Part shown: one piece after another, positions 19,621-31,216 of the stretch | Position numbering within the stretch: position 1 is the stretch's first letter | Layout: each line of letters begins with the position of its first letter | Assembly (NCBI GenBank): GCA_014649555.1 | Contig: BMTG01000013.1 | Coordinates: 1 to 64,000 of the forward strand | Source: Streptomyces globisporus | GTDB lineage: Bacteria > Actinomycetota > Actinomycetes > Streptomycetales > Streptomycetaceae | Reading direction: 5' to 3' | DNA length: 64,000 nucleotides | The notes under the pieces: model-generated | Database searches by the model: none | Told to the model about the DNA's origin: nothing | What the model saw: the letters and a program-made list of their open reading frames with translations, nothing else | Translations under genes and position numbers: made by a program

Positions 19621-20292
19621 ATGGCGCAGGGCGAGGTGCTCGCGTTCGAGGACTACGTACGCACACGGCAGGACGCGCTGCTGCGCAGCGCACGTCGTCT
19701 GGTTCCCGACCCCGTCGATGCCCAGGACCTCCTGCAGACCGCCCTGGTGCGCACGTACGGCCGCTGGGACGGCATCGCCGACAAGTCCCTGGCCGACGCC
19801 TACCTCCGCCGCGTCATGATCAACACCCGTACGGAGTGGTGGCGGGCGCGCAAGCTCGACGAGGTCCCGACCGAGCAGCTGCCCGACGCGAGCGTCGACG
19901 ACGGCAGCGAGCAGCGCGCCGACCGCGCCCTGCTGATGGACATCCTGGGGATTCTGGCTCCGAAGCAGCGCAGCGTCGTCGTGCTGCGACACTGGGAGCA
20001 GATGAGCACGGAGGAGACGGCCGCGGCGCTCGGCATGTCGGCCGGTACGGTCAAGAGCACGCTGCACCGGGCCCTGGCGCGGCTGCGTCAGGAGCTGGAG
20101 AGCCGCGAGCTGGACAGCCGCGAGGCGGTCGCCCGGGAGCACCGGGGCCACCGGGGCGTGGCGCCGGCCGCCTCCGGCCGTGTCCCCGCCCAGCGGTCGC
20201 CGCTGACGTCGGTGCCGGGGGCGAAGGCACACACACCGGCGCAGCGGAGCGGGCGTCACGACGAGCGGGGGATGGAGCGGTGCGCGGCCTGA
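19621..20292 (+). CDS. sigE: RNA polymerase sigma-E factor (ECF, cell-envelope stress)
   Basis: 223 residues. Region 2 includes RSARRLVPDPVDAQDLLQTA and YLRRVMINTRTEWWRARKL. Region 4 includes LAPKQRSVVVLRHWEQMSTE followed by AALGMSAGTVKSTLHRALAR. The sequence and the following cseA-cseB-cseC genes identify it as the sigma-E whose gene is switched on by CseB in response to envelope-damaging antibiotics and lysozyme. It carries a polar C-terminal extension of about 45 residues (from SREAVAREHRGHRG to the end) beyond what I recall for the S. coelicolor protein. Its 3' end overlaps cseA by 13 bp. Confidence 0.95.
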   Translation: MAQGEVLAFEDYVRTRQDALLRSARRLVPDPVDAQDLLQTALVRTYGRWDGIADKSLADAYLRRVMINTRTEWWRARKLDEVPTEQLPDASVDDGSEQRADRALLMDILGILAPKQRSVVVLRHWEQMSTEETAAALGMSAGTVKSTLHRALARLRQELESRELDSREAVAREHRGHRGVAPAASGRVPAQRSPLTSVPGAKAHTPAQRSGRHDERGMERCAA

Positions 20293-21047
20293 ACGGCAGC
20301 AGCAGCGGTGGTGGTGACGGCCTCGGGGACGGCGACGGGCCGGGGAGACCGGTCCGGAGGCCGCGCTTCCGGGGCGGTATGGCGGCGGGTGGCACGGCCT
20401 TGGCCGGACTCGTCGCCTTCGGGCTGTTCAGCGTCGGCTGCTCGACGGGCGGCACCGGCACCCGGGACGAGGGTCCCGCCGGCAGTCAGCCGGTCGCCCA
20501 GATCACCCAGCAGCCCAGCCCGTCCGGCACGACCCCGCCCGTGCGGCGGGTCGACGCCGTACGGCTCCTCAAGAGCGACCCCAAGGTGGGCGAGCGGGTC
20601 CGGGAAGGGCTCAAGCCCTGTGCGGGCAAGGCCTACCCGGTCGACACCTCCTACGGGTCGATGACCGGCGGCCGGACCGCCGACGTGGTGGTCAACGTGA
20701 TGAGCTGCGCCGACTCGGTGAGCGTCGGAACGTATGTGTACCGGGCGGACGACGACGGCTCGTACAAGAACGTCTTCGCCGCCGAGGTCCCCGCCGTCTA
20801 CGGAACGATCGACCGGGGCGATCTCGTGGTGACGACCCAGGTCTACGGTTCGAAGGATCCGCTGGCGTCCCCGTCCGGCTCGGAGGTGGTCACCTACCGT
20901 TGGGCGAGCGACCGCTTCACCGAGCACGACCGGGTGCACAACGACTTCAGCCGGGCCGTCGAGGGCACGGACGGCGACCTGCCCGTGCAGTCGGAACCGG
21001 TGGCACCGGACCCGGCGGACGAACCGGCGCAGCCGGGCAGGAACTGA
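20280..21047 (+). CDS. cseA: CseA lipoprotein, negative modulator of sigE expression
   Basis: About 255 residues from a GTG inside the end of sigE. After a long polar and basic start (to about residue 35) comes the hydrophobic signal GGTALAGLVAFGLFSVGC; the final Cys is the probable lipidation site (SVGC, a slightly unusual lipobox). The mature part (RLLKSDPKVGERVREGLKPC, VVVNVMSCADSVSVGTYVYR) matches the CseA type. In S. coelicolor the lipoprotein dampens signalling through CseC. Position between sigE and cseB is the conserved order. Confidence 0.88.
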   Translation: MRGLNGSSSGGGDGLGDGDGPGRPVRRPRFRGGMAAGGTALAGLVAFGLFSVGCSTGGTGTRDEGPAGSQPVAQITQQPSPSGTTPPVRRVDAVRLLKSDPKVGERVREGLKPCAGKAYPVDTSYGSMTGGRTADVVVNVMSCADSVSVGTYVYRADDDGSYKNVFAAEVPAVYGTIDRGDLVVTTQVYGSKDPLASPSGSEVVTYRWASDRFTEHDRVHNDFSRAVEGTDGDLPVQSEPVAPDPADEPAQPGRN

Positions 21048-21081
21048 CACCGGGCAGGAACGGAAAGCGAGAAGCAGCCCC

Positions 21082-21795
21082 ATGGCCGAGACCCACGTCC
21101 TCTTCGTCGAGGACGACGACGTGATCCGCGAGGCGACCCAGCTCGCCCTGGAGCGGGTCGGTTTCACGGTCACCGCGATGCCCGACGGGCTCTCCGGTCT
21201 GGAGGCGTTCCGCGCCGACCGGCCGGACATCGCCCTGCTCGACGTGATGGTGCCGGGTCTGGACGGGGTCAGCCTGTGCCGCCGTATCCGGGACGAGTCG
21301 ACCGTCCCCGTGATCATGCTCTCCGCGCGGGCCGACTCGATCGACGTGGTGCTCGGCCTGGAGGCCGGCGCCGACGACTACGTGACCAAGCCCTTCGACG
21401 GGGCGGTCCTGGTCGCCCGCATCCGGGCGGTGCTGCGCCGCTTCGGCCATGCGGCCGGACCCGACGGCGCGGGGCCGGGCGGTACGGATGCGGCGGACGA
21501 GGCGCTCGGCGGGGTGCTGGTCTTCGGCGATCTGGAGGTCGACACGGACGGTATGGAGGTGCGGCGCGCCGGTGAGCAGGTGGCGCTGACGCCCACCGAG
21601 ATGCGGCTGCTGTTGGAGTTCTCGTCCGCGCCGGGCACGGTCCTGTCCCGCGACCGGCTCCTGGAGCGGGTCTGGGACTACGGCTGGGGCGGGGACACCC
21701 GGGTCGTGGACGTCCATGTGCAGCGGCTGCGCACCAAGATCGGCCAGGACCGGATCGACACGGTCCGCGGCTTCGGCTACAAGCTGCGCGGATGA
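21082..21795 (+). CDS. cseB: Response regulator CseB (OmpR/PhoB family)
   Basis: 237 residues. The receiver domain has the acidic pocket VEDDD (9-13), phosphorylation site Asp54 in ALLDVMVPG and the conserved Lys in YVTKPFDG. The winged-helix DNA-binding domain ends RVWDYGWGGDTRVVDVHVQR and TVRGFGYKLRG. A Gly-rich linker containing GAGPGGTDAAD joins the two. CseB activates transcription of the sigE operon on envelope stress. Its stop overlaps the start of a 60-codon repeat-encoded frame (ATGA at 21792-21795). Confidence 0.95.
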   Translation: MAETHVLFVEDDDVIREATQLALERVGFTVTAMPDGLSGLEAFRADRPDIALLDVMVPGLDGVSLCRRIRDESTVPVIMLSARADSIDVVLGLEAGADDYVTKPFDGAVLVARIRAVLRRFGHAAGPDGAGPGGTDAADEALGGVLVFGDLEVDTDGMEVRRAGEQVALTPTEMRLLLEFSSAPGTVLSRDRLLERVWDYGWGGDTRVVDVHVQRLRTKIGQDRIDTVRGFGYKLRG

Positions 21796-21974
21796 GCGGG
21801 CCACAGGCGCCGCTGAGGCGGCCACAGACGGAGCGGCCCGGACAGGCAAGGGTGGAGTGGCCGGGACGGGCAAGGGTGGAGCGGCCGGGGCAGGCACAGC
21901 TGGAGCGGCCGGGACGGGCAAGGGCGGGACGGCCGGGGCAGGCACAGATGGAGCGGCCGGTGGTGGGCCCATGA
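21792..21974 (+). CDS. Possible small repeat protein between cseB and cseC
   Basis: A 60-codon frame linked by ATGA overlaps to both neighbours: its ATG overlaps the cseB stop and its TGA overlaps the cseC ATG (21971-21974). It is encoded almost wholly by the 24-bp tandem repeat and reads as an 8-residue repeat of the kind ERPGQAR / ERPGRAR, very basic and Pro-rich. The double overlap suggests it may be translated to couple cseC to cseB. It may equally be a chance frame through a GC-rich repeat. Confidence 0.35.
   Translation: MSGPQAPLRRPQTERPGQARVEWPGRARVERPGQAQLERPGRARAGRPGQAQMERPVVGP
21840..21959 (+). repeat. 24-bp tandem repeat, five units, between cseB and cseC
   Basis: Five contiguous 24-bp units (21840, 21864, 21888, 21912, 21936), alternating between two variants: one containing ggacgggcaagggtggagcg and one containing gggcaggcacag. 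A partial unit precedes them. All three frames stay open through much of the array because the period is divisible by 3. Confidence 0.9.
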
Positions 21975-23308
21975 AGCGGCTGGCCCTGCGGACCGGTGTC
22001 CGCTGGAAGATCAGCATCGCCATCGCGGCGGTCGGCGCGCTCATCGCGGTGGCGCTGAGCCTGGTGGTGCACAACGCGGCCCGCGTCTCGATGATCGAGA
22101 ACGCCCGCGAGGTGCAGCTGGAGCGGCTGCTGGGCGCGCAGCGCTTCTACGAGGCGACGAGCATGCAGAAGGGCGGCCCGAAGTTCGGGGCGAAGCTCAA
22201 CGACCCGACGATCCCGCAGAGCCTGCGCGACGAGGTCCGCAAGAACCGCCGGGCCACCCATGTCGAGCAGGGGGCCGACGGGGTCCCCGAGGTCTGGGCG
22301 GCGGTACCGCTGGCCGGCGGGGACGTGCTGTCGCTGCACACCCGGTTCGCGGACCGCTCGGCCACGATCATGGACGATCTGGACCGGGCCCTGATCATCG
22401 GCTCGGTCTCGGTGGTCTTCGGCGGCTGCGCGCTCGGGGTGCTCATCGGCGGCCAGCTCTCGCGCCGGCTGCGCAAGGCGGCGGCCGCGGCGGGCCGGGT
22501 CGCCCAGGGGCAGACGGACGTCCGGGTCAGGGAGGCGGTCGGCGGGGTCGTCCGCGACGAGACGGACGAGCTGGCGCGGGCGGTCGACGCACTGACCGAC
22601 GCGCTGAACGAGCGGATCGAGGCGGAGCGCCGGGTCACCGCGGACATCGCCCATGAGCTGCGTACCCCGGTGACCGGGCTGCTCACGGCGGCCGAGCTGC
22701 TGCCGCCGGGGCGCCCCACCGAGCTGGTACGGGACCGGGCCCAGGCGATGCGGACGCTGGTCGAGGACGTGCTGGAGGTGGCCCGCCTGGACAGTGCGTC
22801 GGAGCGGGCGGAGCTGCAGGAGCTACCGCTCGGGGAGTTCGTCAGCCGCCGGATCGCTCTGCTGGACCCCGATGTGACCGTGCGGGTGATCCACGAGTCG
22901 TGGGTCTCCACCGATCCGCGCCGGCTGGAGCGCGTCCTCGGCAATCTGCTCGGGAACGCCGCCAAGCACGGCTCCACCCCGGTGGAGGTCTCGGTCGAGG
23001 GCCGGGTGGTGCGGGTCCGGGACCACGGTCCGGGGTTCCCGGAGGAGCTGCTGCGGGACGGGCCGAGCCGGTTCCGTACCGGAAGCGTGGACCGGGCCGG
23101 GCACGGGCACGGGCTCGGGCTGACGATCGCGGCGGGCCAGGCGCGGGTGCTCGGGGCCCGGCTGACCTTCCGCAACGCGGCGCCCTCGGGTGCGGCGGAG
23201 GGCACGGGCGGGGCGATCGCGGTGCTGTGGCTGCCGGAGCACGCGCCGACGGTGACGGGGAGCTTCCCGGTGCTGCGGATGGCGGACCAGCGGCAGCCGT
23301 CGGACTGA
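21971..23308 (+). CDS. cseC: Sensor histidine kinase CseC
   Basis: 445 residues from the ATG at 21971. The N-terminal helix (WKISIAIAAVGALIAVALSL) and a second at about 140-160 (LIIGSVSVVFGGCALGVLIG) flank an extracellular sensor loop. HAMP, then the H-box DIAHELRTP with phospho-acceptor His228, and the ATPase domain with the N-box LGNLLGNAAKHG and the G-box DHGPGFPEE / GHGLGLTI. It senses cell-wall damage and phosphorylates CseB. The frame stays open upstream through the tandem repeat, so an N-terminally extended form from a GTG in the array cannot be excluded. Confidence 0.93.
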   Translation: MKRLALRTGVRWKISIAIAAVGALIAVALSLVVHNAARVSMIENAREVQLERLLGAQRFYEATSMQKGGPKFGAKLNDPTIPQSLRDEVRKNRRATHVEQGADGVPEVWAAVPLAGGDVLSLHTRFADRSATIMDDLDRALIIGSVSVVFGGCALGVLIGGQLSRRLRKAAAAAGRVAQGQTDVRVREAVGGVVRDETDELARAVDALTDALNERIEAERRVTADIAHELRTPVTGLLTAAELLPPGRPTELVRDRAQAMRTLVEDVLEVARLDSASERAELQELPLGEFVSRRIALLDPDVTVRVIHESWVSTDPRRLERVLGNLLGNAAKHGSTPVEVSVEGRVVRVRDHGPGFPEELLRDGPSRFRTGSVDRAGHGHGLGLTIAAGQARVLGARLTFRNAAPSGAAEGTGGAIAVLWLPEHAPTVTGSFPVLRMADQRQPSD

Positions 23309-23522: not shown

Positions 23523-24236
23523 TCAGATGGAGACGTGCACCGAGCGGAGGAACGCGGCCGGGTTCAGCGCCGAGCCGTAGTTCGGGGTGGTGCGGATCTC
23601 GAAGTGCAGGTGCGGGCCGCTGGAGTTGCCGGTGTTGCCGGACAGGGCGATCTTCTGGCCCGTCTTGACCTGCTGGCCGATCTTCACGTTGACCTTCGAC
23701 AGGTGCGCGTACTGCGAGTACTTGCCGTTGGAGTGCTTGATCACGACGGCGTTGCCGTACGCGGGGCCGTCACCGGCGCCGTTCGGGCCGGCCTTCACGA
23801 CGGTGCCGGTGTGGGCGGCCGTGACGGTGGTGCCGATCGGCACGGCGAAGTCCTGGCCGGAGTGCTTGGCGGCCCAGCGGGCGCCACCGGTGCCGTAGCT
23901 GGCGGTCAGCTTGTACTTCTTGACCGGGGCCTTCCAGGAGGCGGCGTTCTTCTTCGCGGCCTTCTTCTTGTCCTCGGCCTTCTTCTTGGCGTCGGAGGCC
24001 TTCTTCGCGGCCGTCTTCTTCGCCGCTTCCGCGGCCTTGGCCTGCGCGGCCGCCTGCTGGGCGACCGAGTCGGCGGTCGTGCTCGCGGCAAGGGGGGCAG
24101 CGGCGGCGGTGCCGCTGGAGGCGAACGCCGTTCCGGCACCCAGCACCACGGACGCTCCCAGGCCGGCGGCCAGGACGGCGCCACGGACGCGGAAGGCGGA
24201 CGGGCGGATGGTGTGCTGGTTCGTTGCGCGCTTCAT
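23523..24236 (-). CDS. Secreted M23 family peptidoglycan endopeptidase
   Basis: 237 residues. A signal peptide (basic start, then VLAAGLGASVVLGAGTAFAS) is followed by an Ala/Lys-rich helical segment (about 55-97). The LytM/M23 domain has its zinc ligands His125 and Asp129 (HSGQDFAV) and the HLH motif at 209-211 (GPHLHFEI). It should cut peptide cross-links in the cell wall. The ATG has ggaggact upstream. Placed next to the sigE envelope-stress operon but convergent with it. Confidence 0.93.
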   Translation of the reverse strand: MKRATNQHTIRPSAFRVRGAVLAAGLGASVVLGAGTAFASSGTAAAAPLAASTTADSVAQQAAAQAKAAEAAKKTAAKKASDAKKKAEDKKKAAKKNAASWKAPVKKYKLTASYGTGGARWAAKHSGQDFAVPIGTTVTAAHTGTVVKAGPNGAGDGPAYGNAVVIKHSNGKYSQYAHLSKVNVKIGQQVKTGQKIALSGNTGNSSGPHLHFEIRTTPNYGSALNPAAFLRSVHVSI

Positions 24237-24691: not shown

Positions 24692-25048
24692 ATGACGGCC
24701 GAGAACACCCACGCCCTGGACGGCATCGAGCTGGCGGACGCCGTCGCCTCCATCCGCAACCAGCTCATCGACGCGGCGACCCGGGGCACGGACCACCCCG
24801 TCTCCTTCGCGGTCGGCGACATCCAGATGGAGTTCACCCTCGAACTGTGCCGGGAGGCGAAAGCGGGCGGCAAGGTGAAGGCCTGGGTGGTCGAGGCGGG
24901 CACGGACGCCGCCCGCACCACGGGCCGCACGCACAAGGTCGCCTTCACGCTGACCCCGCGGAACGCCGCGACGGGCGAGGCGTGGGAGATCGGGACCGAG
25001 GACGACGGGTCGACGGCGGGGTTCGGTGACGGGGCCGGGCAGCCGTGA
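24692..25048 (+). CDS. Trypco2-like small protein, partner of the protease-NACHT gene
   Basis: 118 residues from an ATG. The core LADAVASIRNQLIDAATRGT, FAVGDIQMEFTLELCREA, VKAWVVEAGTDA, and HKVAFTLTP fits the trypsin-co-occurring domain 2 (Trypco2) described for predicted actinobacterial conflict systems. No signal or membrane segment, so cytosolic. Its stop overlaps the GTG of the next gene (GTGA, 25045-25048), so the two proteins are made together. The role is inferred to be a regulator or substrate of the coupled trypsin-like domain. Confidence 0.8.
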   Translation: MTAENTHALDGIELADAVASIRNQLIDAATRGTDHPVSFAVGDIQMEFTLELCREAKAGGKVKAWVVEAGTDAARTTGRTHKVAFTLTPRNAATGEAWEIGTEDDGSTAGFGDGAGQP

Positions 25049-28000
25049 GCGTTGTGCCCTTGGCCGACCGTACGGTCGTCGTCTCCGCGATCCAGCAGGG
25101 CAGCGGCGTCCTGATCGCCGACCGGCTCGTCCTGACCTGCGCCCATGTGGTCAAGTCCGGGTCCGTCCTGATCGCCCACCCGGCCGTCTCCGACCGCGTA
25201 CGGGCCACTGTCGCCTGGATCGACTACGAACTGGACGTGGCCCTGCTGGAGACCGTCGCGCCGGTGCGCCCGGTCGCGCCCGTGCGGCTCGGCGTGATCG
25301 ACACCCGCCAGGCGATACCCGGCTGCGAGATCACCGGCTTCCCCCGCGTCCAGCGGTACGGCCCCGACCGGCGGCTGGAGGCGGACCAGTACACGGCGAC
25401 GGTCCTGCCCGTGGCGGGCAAGGTCCGCGACCTGCTGGTCTGTGATCTGGACGGCCCGCCCGCCGCCCGCCCGGACGACGAGCCGGCCGCTCTCGCCGGC
25501 CTCTCCGGCGGCCCGGTCTTCATGGGGGACGTGCTGCTGGGCGTGGCCCGGCAGGTGCCCCGGCAGCGCGACGGCCGCCGGGTCGAATGCGTGCCGCTCG
25601 CGCCGGTCCTCGCCGCGAAACCCTTCCGGCTCGTCTGCGAGCGGACCGGGATCGGCCTGCGCCTGGAGCGCGTCCACGGCAGCTTCCCGCGTGACCTGCG
25701 GTACGAGGCGGAGTACGCGCAGGCGCTCGGCGTCGCCTACCGCCGGACGAAGATCTTCGGCCTGGACGAACTGAGCCGGCACGACCGGGAATGGGACCTG
25801 GACACGGCCTACCTGAGCCTGGAGGCCGAGGACCGGGCCGCCCCGGGACCGCCCCTCCCCCGGCGCATCGACGACCTCCTCGCCGGCCGTCCCCGGGTAC
25901 TGCTCCGCGGGGACGCGGGCGCGGGCAAGACGACACTGCTGTGGTGGCTGGCCGCCCACGCCTCGGCCCGCACCCTGGACGGCGACCTGGCTCCACTGAA
26001 CGGACTGGTCCCGTTCGTGGTGCCCCTGCGCACCCTGCGTGCCCGGGGGATGACGTTCCCGGGCCCGGCCGAGCTGTCGGGCGCGGCGGGGCTGGTGGTG
26101 GACACGGCCCCGGAGGGCTGGGCAGGCCGGGTCCTGGCGGCCGGGCGGGCGTTGTTGCTGGTGGACGGGCTGGACGAGGTGCCGCCGGAGGAGCGCGAGC
26201 AGGCCCATTTCTGGCTCTCGCAGCTCCTGGCCCGCTATCCGGACACCCGGTGCGTCGTGACCGTACGGCCGCTCGCCGTCGAGCCGGACTGGCTGCGGTC
26301 GGAAGGCTTCGCGGAGTTACGTCTGCTGCCGATGCGGAATGAGGACATCCAGGCGTTCACGGCCTCCTGGCACCGGGCGGCCCGGCTGTCGGAGGAGGAC
26401 GACTCCGAGCGCTTGGACGAGTTGGAACGCGACCTCTCGCACCAGTTCGACCAGAACCCCACGCTCCGTGACCTGGCGCGTACACCGCTGCTGTGCGCGG
26501 TGATCTGCGCCCTGCACCGCCGCCGCGACGGCTTCCTCCCGGAGACCCGCTGGAAGTTGTACCGCTCGGCCCTGGAGATGCTGCTGGGCCACCGCGACCA
26601 CCGCCGCCGGATCGGGAACCCCGAGGGCATCGACCTGGACGTCGAGGAGCACACGCAGCTCCTCCAGCGGATCGCGGTATGGCTGGTCCGGGAGGGCCAG
26701 TCGGAGTTCACCCGGGACCAGGCCCTGCGCCAGCTCCGGCGCGCCCTGGCCGGGATGGAGCGGGTCGGCGCCCAGGGTCCGCCGGAGAAGATCCTCACGC
26801 ATCTGCTCAACCGCAGCGGCCTGCTCCAGGGGCACGGGGACGACACCTACCAGTTCATCCACCGGACCTTCCAGGACTACCTGGCGGCGAAGGAACTCGT
26901 CGAGGACGACCACCTGGGCGAACTGCTGCGGCATGTGGACGAGGAGGCCTGGGAGGACGTGATCCTGCTGGCGGCCGGTCACTGCGGCCGGCGCGAGCTG
27001 GGCGTTCTGGTGGACGGGTTGCTGGACGCGGGGCTGCGGCACGAGGAGGGCACGCTCGACCGCACGGGCATCCATGTGCTGGCCGCCCTGTGCGCGCAGC
27101 ACGCTGCGTGGCTGGAGCGGACCGTACAGGAACGGGTCCGGCAGAGCATGGCCGCGCTGTTCCCGCCGACGGACGAGAAGCAGGCCACCCTCCTGGCCTG
27201 GCTCGGGGAAGCGGCGCTGACGTTCCTGCCGGAGGCCGGAAGCCTGCCCTCCGACGCGCCGTCCGTACGCTGCACGGTCAAGCTGGTGGGGCTGATCGGG
27301 GGCCGCTCGGCCATCCCGCACGCCCGCGCGTGGGCCCGGGAGCATCCGGAACTGGGCCCGGACTTCTTCGCCTCCTGGGACAACTTCCCGCTGGACGTGT
27401 ATGCGTCCGAGGTTCTGGAATCCTGCCGGCTCACCGGGGACTTCGTGGCGGTCTCCCGCCGCCACATGCGGTATCTGCCCCGCCTGACGGACATCGACCG
27501 GCTCCTGGTGCGGGGTGACCTGTCGGAGGCGGAGTTCGTGACGGCCGTGGCGGCGCACCGGCTCACCGGGCTCGGGTTCGGCGACAACCGGCTGATCACC
27601 GACCTCGGCCTACTGGCTTCCGTCGTGCCGGATCTGGAGTTTCTCCATTTCACGCGGTGCTCCGCCATCGAGGACTTCGGGCCTCTCGCGGACTACGCCC
27701 GGTTGGAGAGCTTCGGCCTCCGCCACTGCGGGATCTCCCGGCTCGACGCATTGCCGCCCCTTCCGCACGCTCTCTTCCTGGGTATGGAGGAGAGCCGTCC
27801 CCTGACGCTGCGCGGGCTCGCGTCCTGGGAACAGCTCACCTCGCTCGCCGTCTCCCGGCTCGCCTCGTTCGCCGATGCCTCCGCCGAGCTGCGGGAGCAC
27901 GGGGGTGTTCTGGCACTCCGGCTCGCTGAGCCCCCGTCGGCCGCCGACTGCGCGACCCTGGCTCCGCTGCCCTCCGTCCAACGCCTCATGCTCGACACCA

Positions 28001-28182
28001 CCCCTGCGGACGGTCAGGATCTGCCGCTCCTGCAGGGGCTCTTCCCGTCGCTCCGGGCGCTGGAGCTGAGTCCCGGAACCGGGTGCCCGGCGGGCAGCCT
28101 CGACGCGCTGCGCCGCAGCTGGCCGGAGCTGGAGGTCACGGTGGCCGCCGACGAACAAGGGGCTGCCCCGGACCGGCCGTGA
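25045..28182 (+). CDS. Trypsin-like protease / NACHT ATPase / leucine-rich repeat STAND protein (putative conflict or antiphage effector)
   Basis: 1045 residues. Residues 1-200 are a trypsin-like domain with a complete triad: His34 in LTCAHVV, Asp64 in YELDVALLE and Ser154 in GLSGGPVF. The NACHT module has Walker A GDAGAGKT (289-296), Walker B LLLVDGLDE (370-378) and the downstream HRTFQDYLAAKEL motif. The C-terminus (about 835-1030) is built of irregular leucine-rich repeats. No signal peptide. The layout is that of Avs/NACHT-type STAND defence proteins: repeats sense a trigger, NACHT oligomerises, the protease acts. Codon 425 (26317-26319) is TTA, the rare bldA-dependent codon. A hairpin overlaps the stop. 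Confidence 0.88.
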   Translation: MSVVPLADRTVVVSAIQQGSGVLIADRLVLTCAHVVKSGSVLIAHPAVSDRVRATVAWIDYELDVALLETVAPVRPVAPVRLGVIDTRQAIPGCEITGFPRVQRYGPDRRLEADQYTATVLPVAGKVRDLLVCDLDGPPAARPDDEPAALAGLSGGPVFMGDVLLGVARQVPRQRDGRRVECVPLAPVLAAKPFRLVCERTGIGLRLERVHGSFPRDLRYEAEYAQALGVAYRRTKIFGLDELSRHDREWDLDTAYLSLEAEDRAAPGPPLPRRIDDLLAGRPRVLLRGDAGAGKTTLLWWLAAHASARTLDGDLAPLNGLVPFVVPLRTLRARGMTFPGPAELSGAAGLVVDTAPEGWAGRVLAAGRALLLVDGLDEVPPEEREQAHFWLSQLLARYPDTRCVVTVRPLAVEPDWLRSEGFAELRLLPMRNEDIQAFTASWHRAARLSEEDDSERLDELERDLSHQFDQNPTLRDLARTPLLCAVICALHRRRDGFLPETRWKLYRSALEMLLGHRDHRRRIGNPEGIDLDVEEHTQLLQRIAVWLVREGQSEFTRDQALRQLRRALAGMERVGAQGPPEKILTHLLNRSGLLQGHGDDTYQFIHRTFQDYLAAKELVEDDHLGELLRHVDEEAWEDVILLAAGHCGRRELGVLVDGLLDAGLRHEEGTLDRTGIHVLAALCAQHAAWLERTVQERVRQSMAALFPPTDEKQATLLAWLGEAALTFLPEAGSLPSDAPSVRCTVKLVGLIGGRSAIPHARAWAREHPELGPDFFASWDNFPLDVYASEVLESCRLTGDFVAVSRRHMRYLPRLTDIDRLLVRGDLSEAEFVTAVAAHRLTGLGFGDNRLITDLGLLASVVPDLEFLHFTRCSAIEDFGPLADYARLESFGLRHCGISRLDALPPLPHALFLGMEESRPLTLRGLASWEQLTSLAVSRLASFADASAELREHGGVLALRLAEPPSAADCATLAPLPSVQRLMLDTTPADGQDLPLLQGLFPSLRALELSPGTGCPAGSLDALRRSWPELEVTVAADEQGAAPDRP

Positions 28183-28204
28183 AGCCGATTCCGGGGCAGC
28201 CCCT
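28158..28204. terminator. Hairpin overlapping the NACHT-gene stop codon
   Basis: Perfect 15-bp inverted repeat (28158-28172 and 28190-28204) with a 17-nt loop holding the stop codon. It lies between the NACHT gene and the converging clpC and can end transcription from both sides. Confidence 0.75.
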
Positions 28205-28237: not shown

Positions 28238-30766
<2,529 letters not shown>

Positions 30767-31216
30767 CGTTAATCGCTCCTCAGAGCGGTCGGTCAGTGAG
30801 GGGTCGGTCCCCTCCCAGTCCTTCCGCATGCTAGTCCCGCAGGACGGGACAGCTCATTCCAACTGCCGACATCCGTCCGGATCACCCCGCGCCGGGCGGG
30901 GATTCTTACTGCCGAACAGCTGACAACTGCTCCAACCCGATGGTGCGAGACGATGTTCCCGCAGGCCAGGCAGATACCCCTTTCGCCAGTACGCCGATGG
31001 CGAACGTGAGACGCCTCGGCCAGCGTGTCGCCCCTTCCCACTAGGAAAGTCTTACCCGCAATCACTGACAGTCCATGCGGCGCGCCCCGGTTCCCTCCGC
31101 TACGGGCGAACACCCTTGCGCTGCTGAATGCTCCCGAGCGCCCCCTCAGCAGGGACACGGAGTAGTCGCGCACGGACTTTCCGTAACTCCGGAGGCGGTT
31201 CCGCGGTTCATCGGAC
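30767..31216 (-). promoter_or_regulatory. Upstream region of clpC, with ClgR-box-like site
   Basis: No gene seen. On the minus strand gttcgcccgtagcgg (31097-31111) resembles the ClgR operator (CGCY-NAN-RGCG, one mismatch), and ClgR is known to activate clp genes in actinobacteria. A ttcgcc/ggcgaa inverted repeat with an 11-bp spacer lies around 30986-31008. No convincing -35/-10 pair was found. The rightward gene at 31217 must also start from here. Confidence 0.35.

What the first reader, a model, noticed from the sequence alone, without database searches (positions are those of the whole stretch)
24692..28182. Trypco2 plus trypsin-NACHT-LRR: a compact candidate STAND conflict/antiphage system between core genes
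Seen: two overlapping genes (GTGA), a 118-aa Trypco2-like protein and a 1045-aa protein with an intact trypsin triad (His34, Asp64, Ser154), NACHT Walker A and B motifs and C-terminal leucine-rich repeats. Known: trypsin-like and NACHT/STAND modules occur in Avs and bacterial NACHT defence proteins, and Trypco domains were described in predicted NTP-dependent conflict systems. Inference: the repeats sense an invader or stress signal, ATP-driven assembly turns on the protease, and the small protein is its regulator or target. To my knowledge this pair has no experimental function.
Basis: partly seen in the sequence, partly recalled or inferred. Interest (0 to 1): 0.85.

Follow-up and report, generated by a model that had tools for sequence, protein, structure and literature searches.

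The report
Streptomyces immune-receptor locus with swappable sensor
Two overlapping bacterial genes look like a small innate-immune receptor, a protease switch with an interchangeable sensor end, sitting at a chromosome spot that in other Streptomyces species often holds a different receptor of the same kind or no receptor at all.

Summary
In detail: a Trypco2 gene (24692-25048) overlaps by GTGA a trypsin-NACHT-LRR gene (25045-28182); triad and Walker motifs are invariant in 20 of 20 aligned proteins. The best whole-length structural match is the NLRP3 inflammasome disk. It is best read as a bacterial NLR-type immune switch: LRR sensor, NACHT assembly, protease output, Trypco2 as the protease's partner. 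Defence itself is inferred, not shown.

(2) The sensor (residues ~690-1045) is decoupled from the rest among close relatives: S. parvus is 90% identical over NACHT and 36% beyond, with synonymous divergence raised too, while S. rubiginosohelvolus shares the whole allele. This points to exchange of the sensor block. (3) Trypco2 ends in a GST..FG tail outside the Pfam domain.

Kind: known (predicted trypsin-STAND/Trypco systems; bacterial NLRs). New variant: fixed site plus sensor exchange.

The parts
24692..25048 (+). Trypco2 gene, 118 aa (domain residues 12-89)
   Evidence: Pfam PF19631 E 5.6e-25; alignment of 35 rows, the window's included
25007..25027 (+). C-terminal tail motif GSTAGFG of Trypco2 (residues 106-112), outside the Pfam domain
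   Evidence: Phe111 invariant in 35 of 35 rows of A1; FG in 34 of 35 distinct relatives, a second FG-like copy in 6 of them by a loose pattern
25045..25048 (+). GTGA overlap: start of the large gene in the stop of the small one
   Evidence: sequence; the same -4 spacing in 7 of 20 loci measured, the window's included
25045..28182 (+). trypsin-NACHT-LRR protein, 1045 aa
25045..25629 (+). trypsin-like (HtrA/Deg-fold) protease domain, residues 1-195; triad His34, Asp64, Ser154
25897..26379 (+). NACHT NTPase domain, residues 285-445; Walker A 25909-25935, Walker B 26152-26178
   Evidence: Pfam NACHT E 7.8e-21; motifs invariant in 20 of 20
27112..28179 (+). apparently exchanged C-terminal sensor block, residues about 690-1045 (LRR from about 800)
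   Evidence: identity cliff; repeat fold in the model
28158..28204 (.). perfect 15-bp inverted repeat spanning the stop codon, between the tail-to-tail NLR and clpC genes; possible shared terminator (no T-run)
   Evidence: script; not among the sites of the terminator scan, which needs a loop of 3-8 and a T-run
23523..24236 (-). left flank of the site: M23 peptidase gene
   Evidence: matched in 114 of 121 genus genomes at E <= 1e-45
28238..30829 (-). right flank of the site: clpC
   Evidence: matched in 120 of 121 genus genomes at E <= 1e-300

Best explanation
The pair is an intracellular immune receptor of the bacterial NLR kind. The LRR block binds an invader product or an invader-caused change; the NACHT domain then exchanges nucleotide and assembles a disk or wheel; clustering switches on the N-terminal HtrA-like protease, as oligomerisation is proposed to do for the proteases of Hachiman and Avs; the protease acts with its partner Trypco2, most likely by cleaving or releasing its tail, and the result is growth arrest or death of the infected hypha. 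The receptor sits at a fixed chromosomal gap (M23-clpC) and its sensor block is replaced as a unit by recombination between species, with cross-overs in the conserved helical domain and near clpC. SHOWN here: domains, intact motifs, association of Trypco2 with trypsin, site occupancy, sensor decoupling among close relatives. INFERRED: phage or other invader as trigger, oligomerisation, protease activation, what Trypco2 does, cell death, recombination as the cause of the decoupling.
Against: No experiment on this pair was found; flanking genes are core genes, and the only clear PADLOC match among four tested is clpC to AAA-type models. The Trypco2 model was poor (pLDDT 53.5), so there is no structural support for any Trypco2 role. 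Trypco2 distances follow NACHT better than trypsin (partial rho 0.78 against 0.24), which does not favour trypsin-specific co-evolution. One of 19 trypsin-type genes at the site (the first of two in G094) has no Trypco2 found beside it. With more distant members (24 rows) NACHT and sensor identities do correlate (rho 0.70), so the decoupling is a feature of close relatives and could partly be saturation. The excess divergence of the pair's front part over wider flanks is modest against S. parvus (dS 0.13-0.20 against 0.10 in the two-component genes).
Confidence: 0.6

Rival explanations
1. Sub-question on Trypco2 (does not compete with the immune reading): Trypco2 is an inhibitor or chaperone that holds the protease off (tail as pseudo-substrate), not its substrate or pro-effector; the protease then acts on host or invader proteins.
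For: Small, overlapping, upstream; conserved tail with one invariant aromatic residue; Trypco2 is found with proteases on several different switch types. This fits a regulator as well as a substrate.
Against: In the closest tested arrangement (protease fused to a sensor, partner gene just upstream) the partner is the substrate (PMC12799240, passages). Nothing here separates the two.
Confidence: 0.4
2. The sensor block is not exchanged but simply evolves very fast by point mutation under selection, or by targeted hypermutation.
For: dN/dS in the sensor block is about twice that of the rest even within the shared allele (0.39-0.48 against 0.16-0.23, G000 against S. rubiginosohelvolus). Saturation at 35-50% identity would also blur correlations; correlation returns over wider distances.
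Against: Between G000 and S. rubiginosohelvolus dS in the sensor (0.11-0.15) is no higher than in the rest (0.13-0.19), so there is no local hypermutation there; yet against S. parvus dS jumps from 0.16-0.25 to 0.62-0.93 (rough, poor codon alignment) and DNA identity falls to 31-61% from 27200 on, then is 96% in the block from 28200. The nearest relative by sensor differs from the nearest by NACHT in 8 of 15.
Confidence: 0.2
3. A kin- or allo-recognition (self/non-self) switch rather than an antiviral one: LRR alleles kept diverse as at fungal het loci.
For: Diverged alleles at a fixed site between near-identical immediate flanks; found in mycelial bacteria; fungal NLR het genes are a parallel (PMC12222747, start of abstract in a search listing).
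Against: 48 of 100 genomes have no NACHT gene at the site; a plasmid copy exists. Both fit invader defence as well or better. A partner allele was not searched for.
Confidence: 0.12
4. A proteostasis or stress module that belongs to clpC functionally.
For: Adjacent, tail to tail, with a perfect inverted repeat between; HtrA-like protease fold.
Against: The trypsin-type gene is at 18 of 100 sites; the others hold NNH1-NACHT genes, other genes or no called gene; related genes occur elsewhere in genomes and on a plasmid.
Confidence: 0.06

Closest known systems
Predicted trypsin/Trypco conflict systems (VMAP ternary and related; PMC7159879)
   Same: Trypco2 next to a trypsin-like peptidase that is the N-terminal effector of an NTP-dependent switch; such systems over-represented in multicellular bacteria. 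The paper names Trypco1/2 as neighbours of trypsin-VMAP genes (passages).
   Different: Here the switch is NACHT-LRR in one protein, with no VMAP match. The passages read do not describe this pairing; the whole paper was not read.
Bacterial NLRs / bNACHT antiphage proteins
   Same: Central NACHT, N-terminal effector, C-terminal sensor; PMC12169576 calls NACHT proteins with LRRs bona fide bacterial NLRs (passages).
   Different: The bNACHT proteins named in those passages carry PD-(D/E)XK and NCH1 parts or SNaCT domains, not a trypsin with a Trypco2 partner; no antiphage test here.
EruA, NACHT antiphage protein (NCBIfam NF058535)
   Same: Partial match over residues 369-620, E 1.8e-6.
   Different: 26.4 bits against a cut-off of 1000; no paper on EruA was found.
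Nuclease-protease pairs in Avs1, Hachiman, Lamassu, DRT (PMC12799240)
   Same: [quoted passage not shown] protease domain recognised by LmuA, Avs1b and RT-protease models.
   Different: The upstream partner is Trypco2, not a metallo-beta-lactamase-type pro-nuclease; sensor is NACHT-LRR.
CARD-NLR gasdermin systems and LypABC (PMC13236601, passages)
   Same: A trypsin-like peptidase working with an NLR-like ATPase, leading to lysis.
   Different: There the peptidase protein and the NLR-like protein are separate and joined through a CARD; no such domain was matched here.
NNH1-NACHT(-LRR) proteins of Streptomyces
   Same: Same chromosomal gap, NACHT about 40-45% identical; NACHT and NNH1 in 41 of 41 non-trypsin NACHT genes at the site, LRR_4 in 10 of 41 at E <= 0.001.
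   Different: Helical NNH1 instead of trypsin, no Trypco2 in 33 of 34 such-only genomes; separate clade in the NACHT tree for most rows.

Membership tests
Trypco2 (PF19631) | match above the curated score | tested here: met
   87.8 bits against 24.2
Trypco2 (PF19631) | neighbour of a trypsin-like peptidase gene | tested here: met
   overlapping gene; 18 of 18 trypsin-type genomes at the site
Bacterial NLR (NACHT plus LRR) | NACHT domain with intact Walker A and B | tested here: met
Bacterial NLR (NACHT plus LRR) | C-terminal leucine-rich repeats | tested here: met
   repeat fold from about residue 800 with high pLDDT, NLRP3 and NLRC4 entries in the fold search; but Pfam LRR_4 is below cut-off
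Bacterial NLR (NACHT plus LRR) | antiphage activity | not testable with these tools
   needs phage challenge
EruA (NF058535) | score above the curated cut-off | tested here: not met
   26.4 bits against 1000
VMAP ternary system | VMAP-C domain | tested here: not met
   no VMAP match at E <= 1 in either protein
VMAP ternary system | MoxR and vWA partner genes | not tested
   the immediate neighbours are an M23 peptidase gene and clpC; the wider genome was not searched for MoxR/vWA
Avs (AVAST) | match of the whole protein to an Avs model | tested here: not met
   NCBIfam Avs1b residues 12-88 only, 14.2 bits against 1500; PADLOC Avs1b residues 14-84
Avs1/Hachiman/Lamassu nuclease-protease pair | trypsin-like protease fused to a switch protein with a partner gene just upstream | tested here: met
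Avs1/Hachiman/Lamassu nuclease-protease pair | the partner is a metallo-beta-lactamase-fold pro-nuclease | tested here: not met
   partner is Trypco2, 118 aa, its only Pfam match at E <= 1

The most novel reading that the evidence does not exclude
The M23-clpC gap of Streptomyces is a standing NLR locus at which two receptor classes (trypsin-NACHT-LRR with Trypco2, and NNH1-NACHT-LRR) replace each other and at which the LRR sensor is a recombining cassette swapped among species onto a conserved protease-NACHT chassis: a bacterial counterpart of plant R-gene and fungal het loci, made by ordinary recombination rather than by a diversity-generating element, with Trypco2's GST..FG tail as the protease's dedicated ligand.
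Probability: 0.45. Interest if true: 0.78.

Novelty: new variant of a known kind. Interest (0 to 1): 0.62.

Why it matters
If right, it offers a bacterial NLR with a natural series of sensor alleles on one chassis at one site, which is the material needed to find what bacterial LRR sensors recognise and to test whether NLR sensor swapping is a general rule across life. It also gives Trypco2, for which the two papers found (passages) offer comparative genomics only, a testable role as partner of an NLR-driven protease.

Tried and rejected
Recent effector swap at the site (trypsin for NNH1 on one backbone) was considered and rejected as the main story: the NACHT tree puts 30 of 35 trypsin-labelled rows in one clade (with two G057 rows whose trypsin lies in another frame) apart from the NNH1 rows; L212 and L215 fall outside, and L060, L061 and L203 sit on the NNH1 side (L203 and L060 are long branches and L061 has odd letter make-up, so unsure; many rows are the same gene fetched twice, 74 different of 84). 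A donor for the window's sensor block was sought in 392 genus genomes: best match 44% apart from its own genome, so no donor was found; S. rubiginosohelvolus, which shares the allele, was evidently not in that sample. Trypsin-specific co-evolution of Trypco2 was tested and not supported. The Trypco2 model was too poor to search. A profile search of Trypco2 against PDB gave only E 0.62. No phage record matches the large protein at E <= 1e-5. The paper search for NNH1 gave 332 papers, the 10 listed being unrelated uses. In the fold searches at most 50 rows are shown; no Avs or bacterial NACHT entry was among them, which excludes nothing.

Dropped before counts or otherwise limiting: 20 of 120 clpC genomes where M23 was missing or not linked on the contig; one genome without a clpC match. 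NACHT at a site means a tblastn stretch of 200 or more query residues. The Trypco2 count is per genome. G057, G082 and G094, whose trypsin and NACHT hits lie in different frames, were left out of A2 and the identity tables but are counted as trypsin-type at the site. Copies of one species (S. durocortorensis as G178, S. anulatus as G115, G286 as S. parvus; identical in both parts) were reduced to one each. The 40 distant Trypco2 loci were picked by hand's list. The Trypco2 rows of A1 were found by similarity to the window's protein, tail included, so tail conservation is partly selected. In some searches the front of some rows was trimmed by a fixed offset, which lowers some trypsin identities. 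In one search seven Trypco2 rows are aligned segments only, and rows without a Trypco2 hit fell out. Synonymous rates in the sensor against S. parvus, S. sindenensis and S. anulatus rest on poor codon alignments.
Full report

HOW WIDESPREAD. Searching with the window's Trypco2, 123 of 199 genus genomes match at E <= 0.001; with the large protein 80 of 101 match at E <= 1e-30, many of them only behind the protease. The Pfam Trypco2 model matches 4 of 296 genomes drawn across the phylum, three of the same genus (the window's own included) and one of another family.

THE SITE. ClpC was found in 120 of 121 genus genomes and the M23 gene in 114 of 121; in 100 of the 120 they lie within 30 kb on one contig in the same arrangement, with gaps under 1.5 kb in 37, 1.5-2.6 kb in 10 and at least 2.6 kb in 53. 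The 100 gaps were fetched and searched. 52 hold at least one NACHT gene (60 genes, of which 19 trypsin-type). 18 genomes are trypsin-type, and each of the 18 has a Trypco2, though only one was found for the two trypsin-type genes of G094; 34 have only the other type, of which 1 has a Trypco2 (G011, beside clpC and without trypsin); of the 48 without a NACHT gene 1 has a broken Trypco2 relic (G005) (Fisher p 4e-13, not corrected for relatedness). The other type carries the helical NNH1 domain in 41 of 41 genes. Eleven gaps without such NACHT genes were read for coding frames: 8 show acid-phosphatase-like proteins (Pfam confirmed in one, G026), 2 a PQQ-repeat-like and 1 a carboxypeptidase-like protein (read from sequence); many small gaps show no called gene. 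G005 keeps Trypco2 and NACHT pieces, G100 and G052 short NACHT-like pieces, i.e. probably decayed copies. Trypsin-type genes also occur away from clpC (G009, G011 C4, G063 C135), and one pair sits on a 67.7-kb Streptomyces jietaisiensis plasmid within about 10 kb of its replication and partition genes.

THE SENSOR. Comparing the window with named relatives, DNA identity to S. parvus, S. sindenensis and S. anulatus is mostly 85-100% along M23, Trypco2, protease, NACHT and helical domain, falls to 31-62% from about 27200 to the stop codon, and is 90-96% in the block from 28200 and higher in clpC (S. anulatus also dips at 24900-25200 and 25800). Protein identity to S. parvus is 90% for residues 205-680 and 36% for 700-1045. 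Synonymous divergence (Nei-Gojobori) against S. parvus is 0.014 in M23, 0.039 in clpC, 0.05-0.06 in two genes beyond clpC, 0.10 in the two-component genes on the left, 0.13 in Trypco2, 0.20 in protease-NACHT-helical, and 0.62-0.93 in the sensor. S. rubiginosohelvolus carries the same sensor class: dS 0.11-0.15 there against 0.13-0.19 upstream, though the flanking genes differ by only 0.017-0.052. So the pair is more diverged than its immediate flanks (modestly so against the two-component genes in S. parvus), and within it the sensor is of a different class. Among 15 close relatives 97 of 105 pairs have NACHT identity at least 20 points above sensor identity; trypsin and NACHT identities correlate (Spearman 0.65, Mantel p 0.0005) and NACHT and sensor do not (-0.05, p 0.58). 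With 24 rows, distant ones included, NACHT and sensor do correlate (0.70). Thirteen other pairs at the site, mostly NNH1-type, show a milder and variable drop (for example 86 to 54 and 85 to 43, but 97 to 96 and 79 to 78). The simplest account is replacement of the sensor block by recombination; homogenisation of the chassis with old sensor classes would look similar and is not excluded.

TRYPCO2. Of 40 hand-picked distant Trypco2 loci, 30 have a trypsin domain on the same strand within 700 bp downstream, 4 of them with this NACHT profile. Of the other ten, three lie by EAD2-VMAP genes (L216, L219, L220) and one has trypsin-EAD2 2.3 kb on (L218); in L217 and L236 a trypsin gene lies on the other strand. 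Seven trypsin partners were annotated: five show nSTAND5 with TPR matches (nSTAND5 above its cut-off in two), one TPR without it, one NPHP3/NACHT; L225 is trypsin-EAD2 and L236 trypsin with HEAT repeats. So Trypco2 accompanies the protease across several switch types. Close Trypco2 proteins end in a tail beyond the Pfam domain with GST..FG: Phe111 is invariant in the 35 rows of A1, the window's included; in 35 distinct relatives FG is present in 34, and a loose pattern finds a second FG-like copy in 6. Among the 40 distant ones 2 have FG in the tail (L224, L239), 10 end in GER and L235 in DER, one shows no tail (counted by eye); of the GER set three lie by EAD2-VMAP, two by trypsin-EAD2 and one by trypsin-NACHT-like genes, four were not annotated. 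Tail type therefore follows partner type loosely, which may be only common descent. The Trypco2 model is too poor for structural inference.

MECHANISM. By the anatomy: sensor, NACHT switch, protease output, small partner. The protease belongs with defence proteases for which oligomerisation is proposed to trigger cleavage of a partner encoded just upstream (PMC12799240, passages; PADLOC LmuA, RT-Protease_XI and Avs1b matches). By analogy Trypco2 stands in the substrate's position, but an inhibitor or adaptor fits too. In PMC7159879 (passages) Trypco1 and Trypco2 are named as mutually exclusive neighbours of trypsin-VMAP genes, with a general proposal of proteolytic release of effectors; in PMC10907252 (passages) Trypco2 is called an adapter domain near diversity-generating retroelements. 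A search for Trypco2 or trypsin-co-occurring found those two papers only. Searches combining NACHT with trypsin, Streptomyces, phage, defence, bNACHT or leucine-rich repeat and Streptomyces with hotspot, STAND, antiphage or clpC showed, by title and abstract start among the rows listed, no experiment on this pair and no report of this site; two searches listed 15 of 24 and 15 of 343, and most subscription papers are not held.

VERDICT. It is a new variant of a known kind, made notable by a fixed NLR site and by apparent sensor exchange. The names sigE/cse for genes at 19621-23308, which the scripts use as labels, are recalled from memory and come from no call; so is the comparison with plant R-gene loci.

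Noticed in passing
window 19621-23308: Sigma-factor-like, response-regulator-like and histidine-kinase-like frames in a row, resembling the sigE-cse envelope-stress locus (name recalled, family not tested).
   Followed up: no
L113:916-1560 (G026) and similar frames in 7 other gaps read: A secreted acid-phosphatase-like protein (PF03767, confirmed in G026 only) occupies the same M23-clpC gap in genomes that lack the NLR.
   Followed up: partly
L094, L098, L145, L162, L164, L169, L172, L187: Two NACHT genes at the site in eight of 52 genomes; in L094 and L172 one NNH1-type plus one trypsin-type, in L169 two trypsin-type, one of them broken.
   Followed up: partly
L213, L216-L220, L225, L230, L232, L234 (GER) and L235 (DER): Another Trypco2 group ends in a ..GER-like tail, several beside EAD2-VMAP or trypsin-EAD2 genes; a possible partner-specific tail code.
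   Followed up: partly
L060, L061, L203: Trypsin with Trypco2 (downstream instead of upstream in L060) on NACHT backbones that group with the NNH1 side of the tree: possible independent acquisition of the protease-Trypco2 module (L060 and L203 are long branches).
   Followed up: partly
window 28158-28204: Perfect 15-bp inverted repeat around the NLR stop codon between two converging genes.
   Followed up: partly
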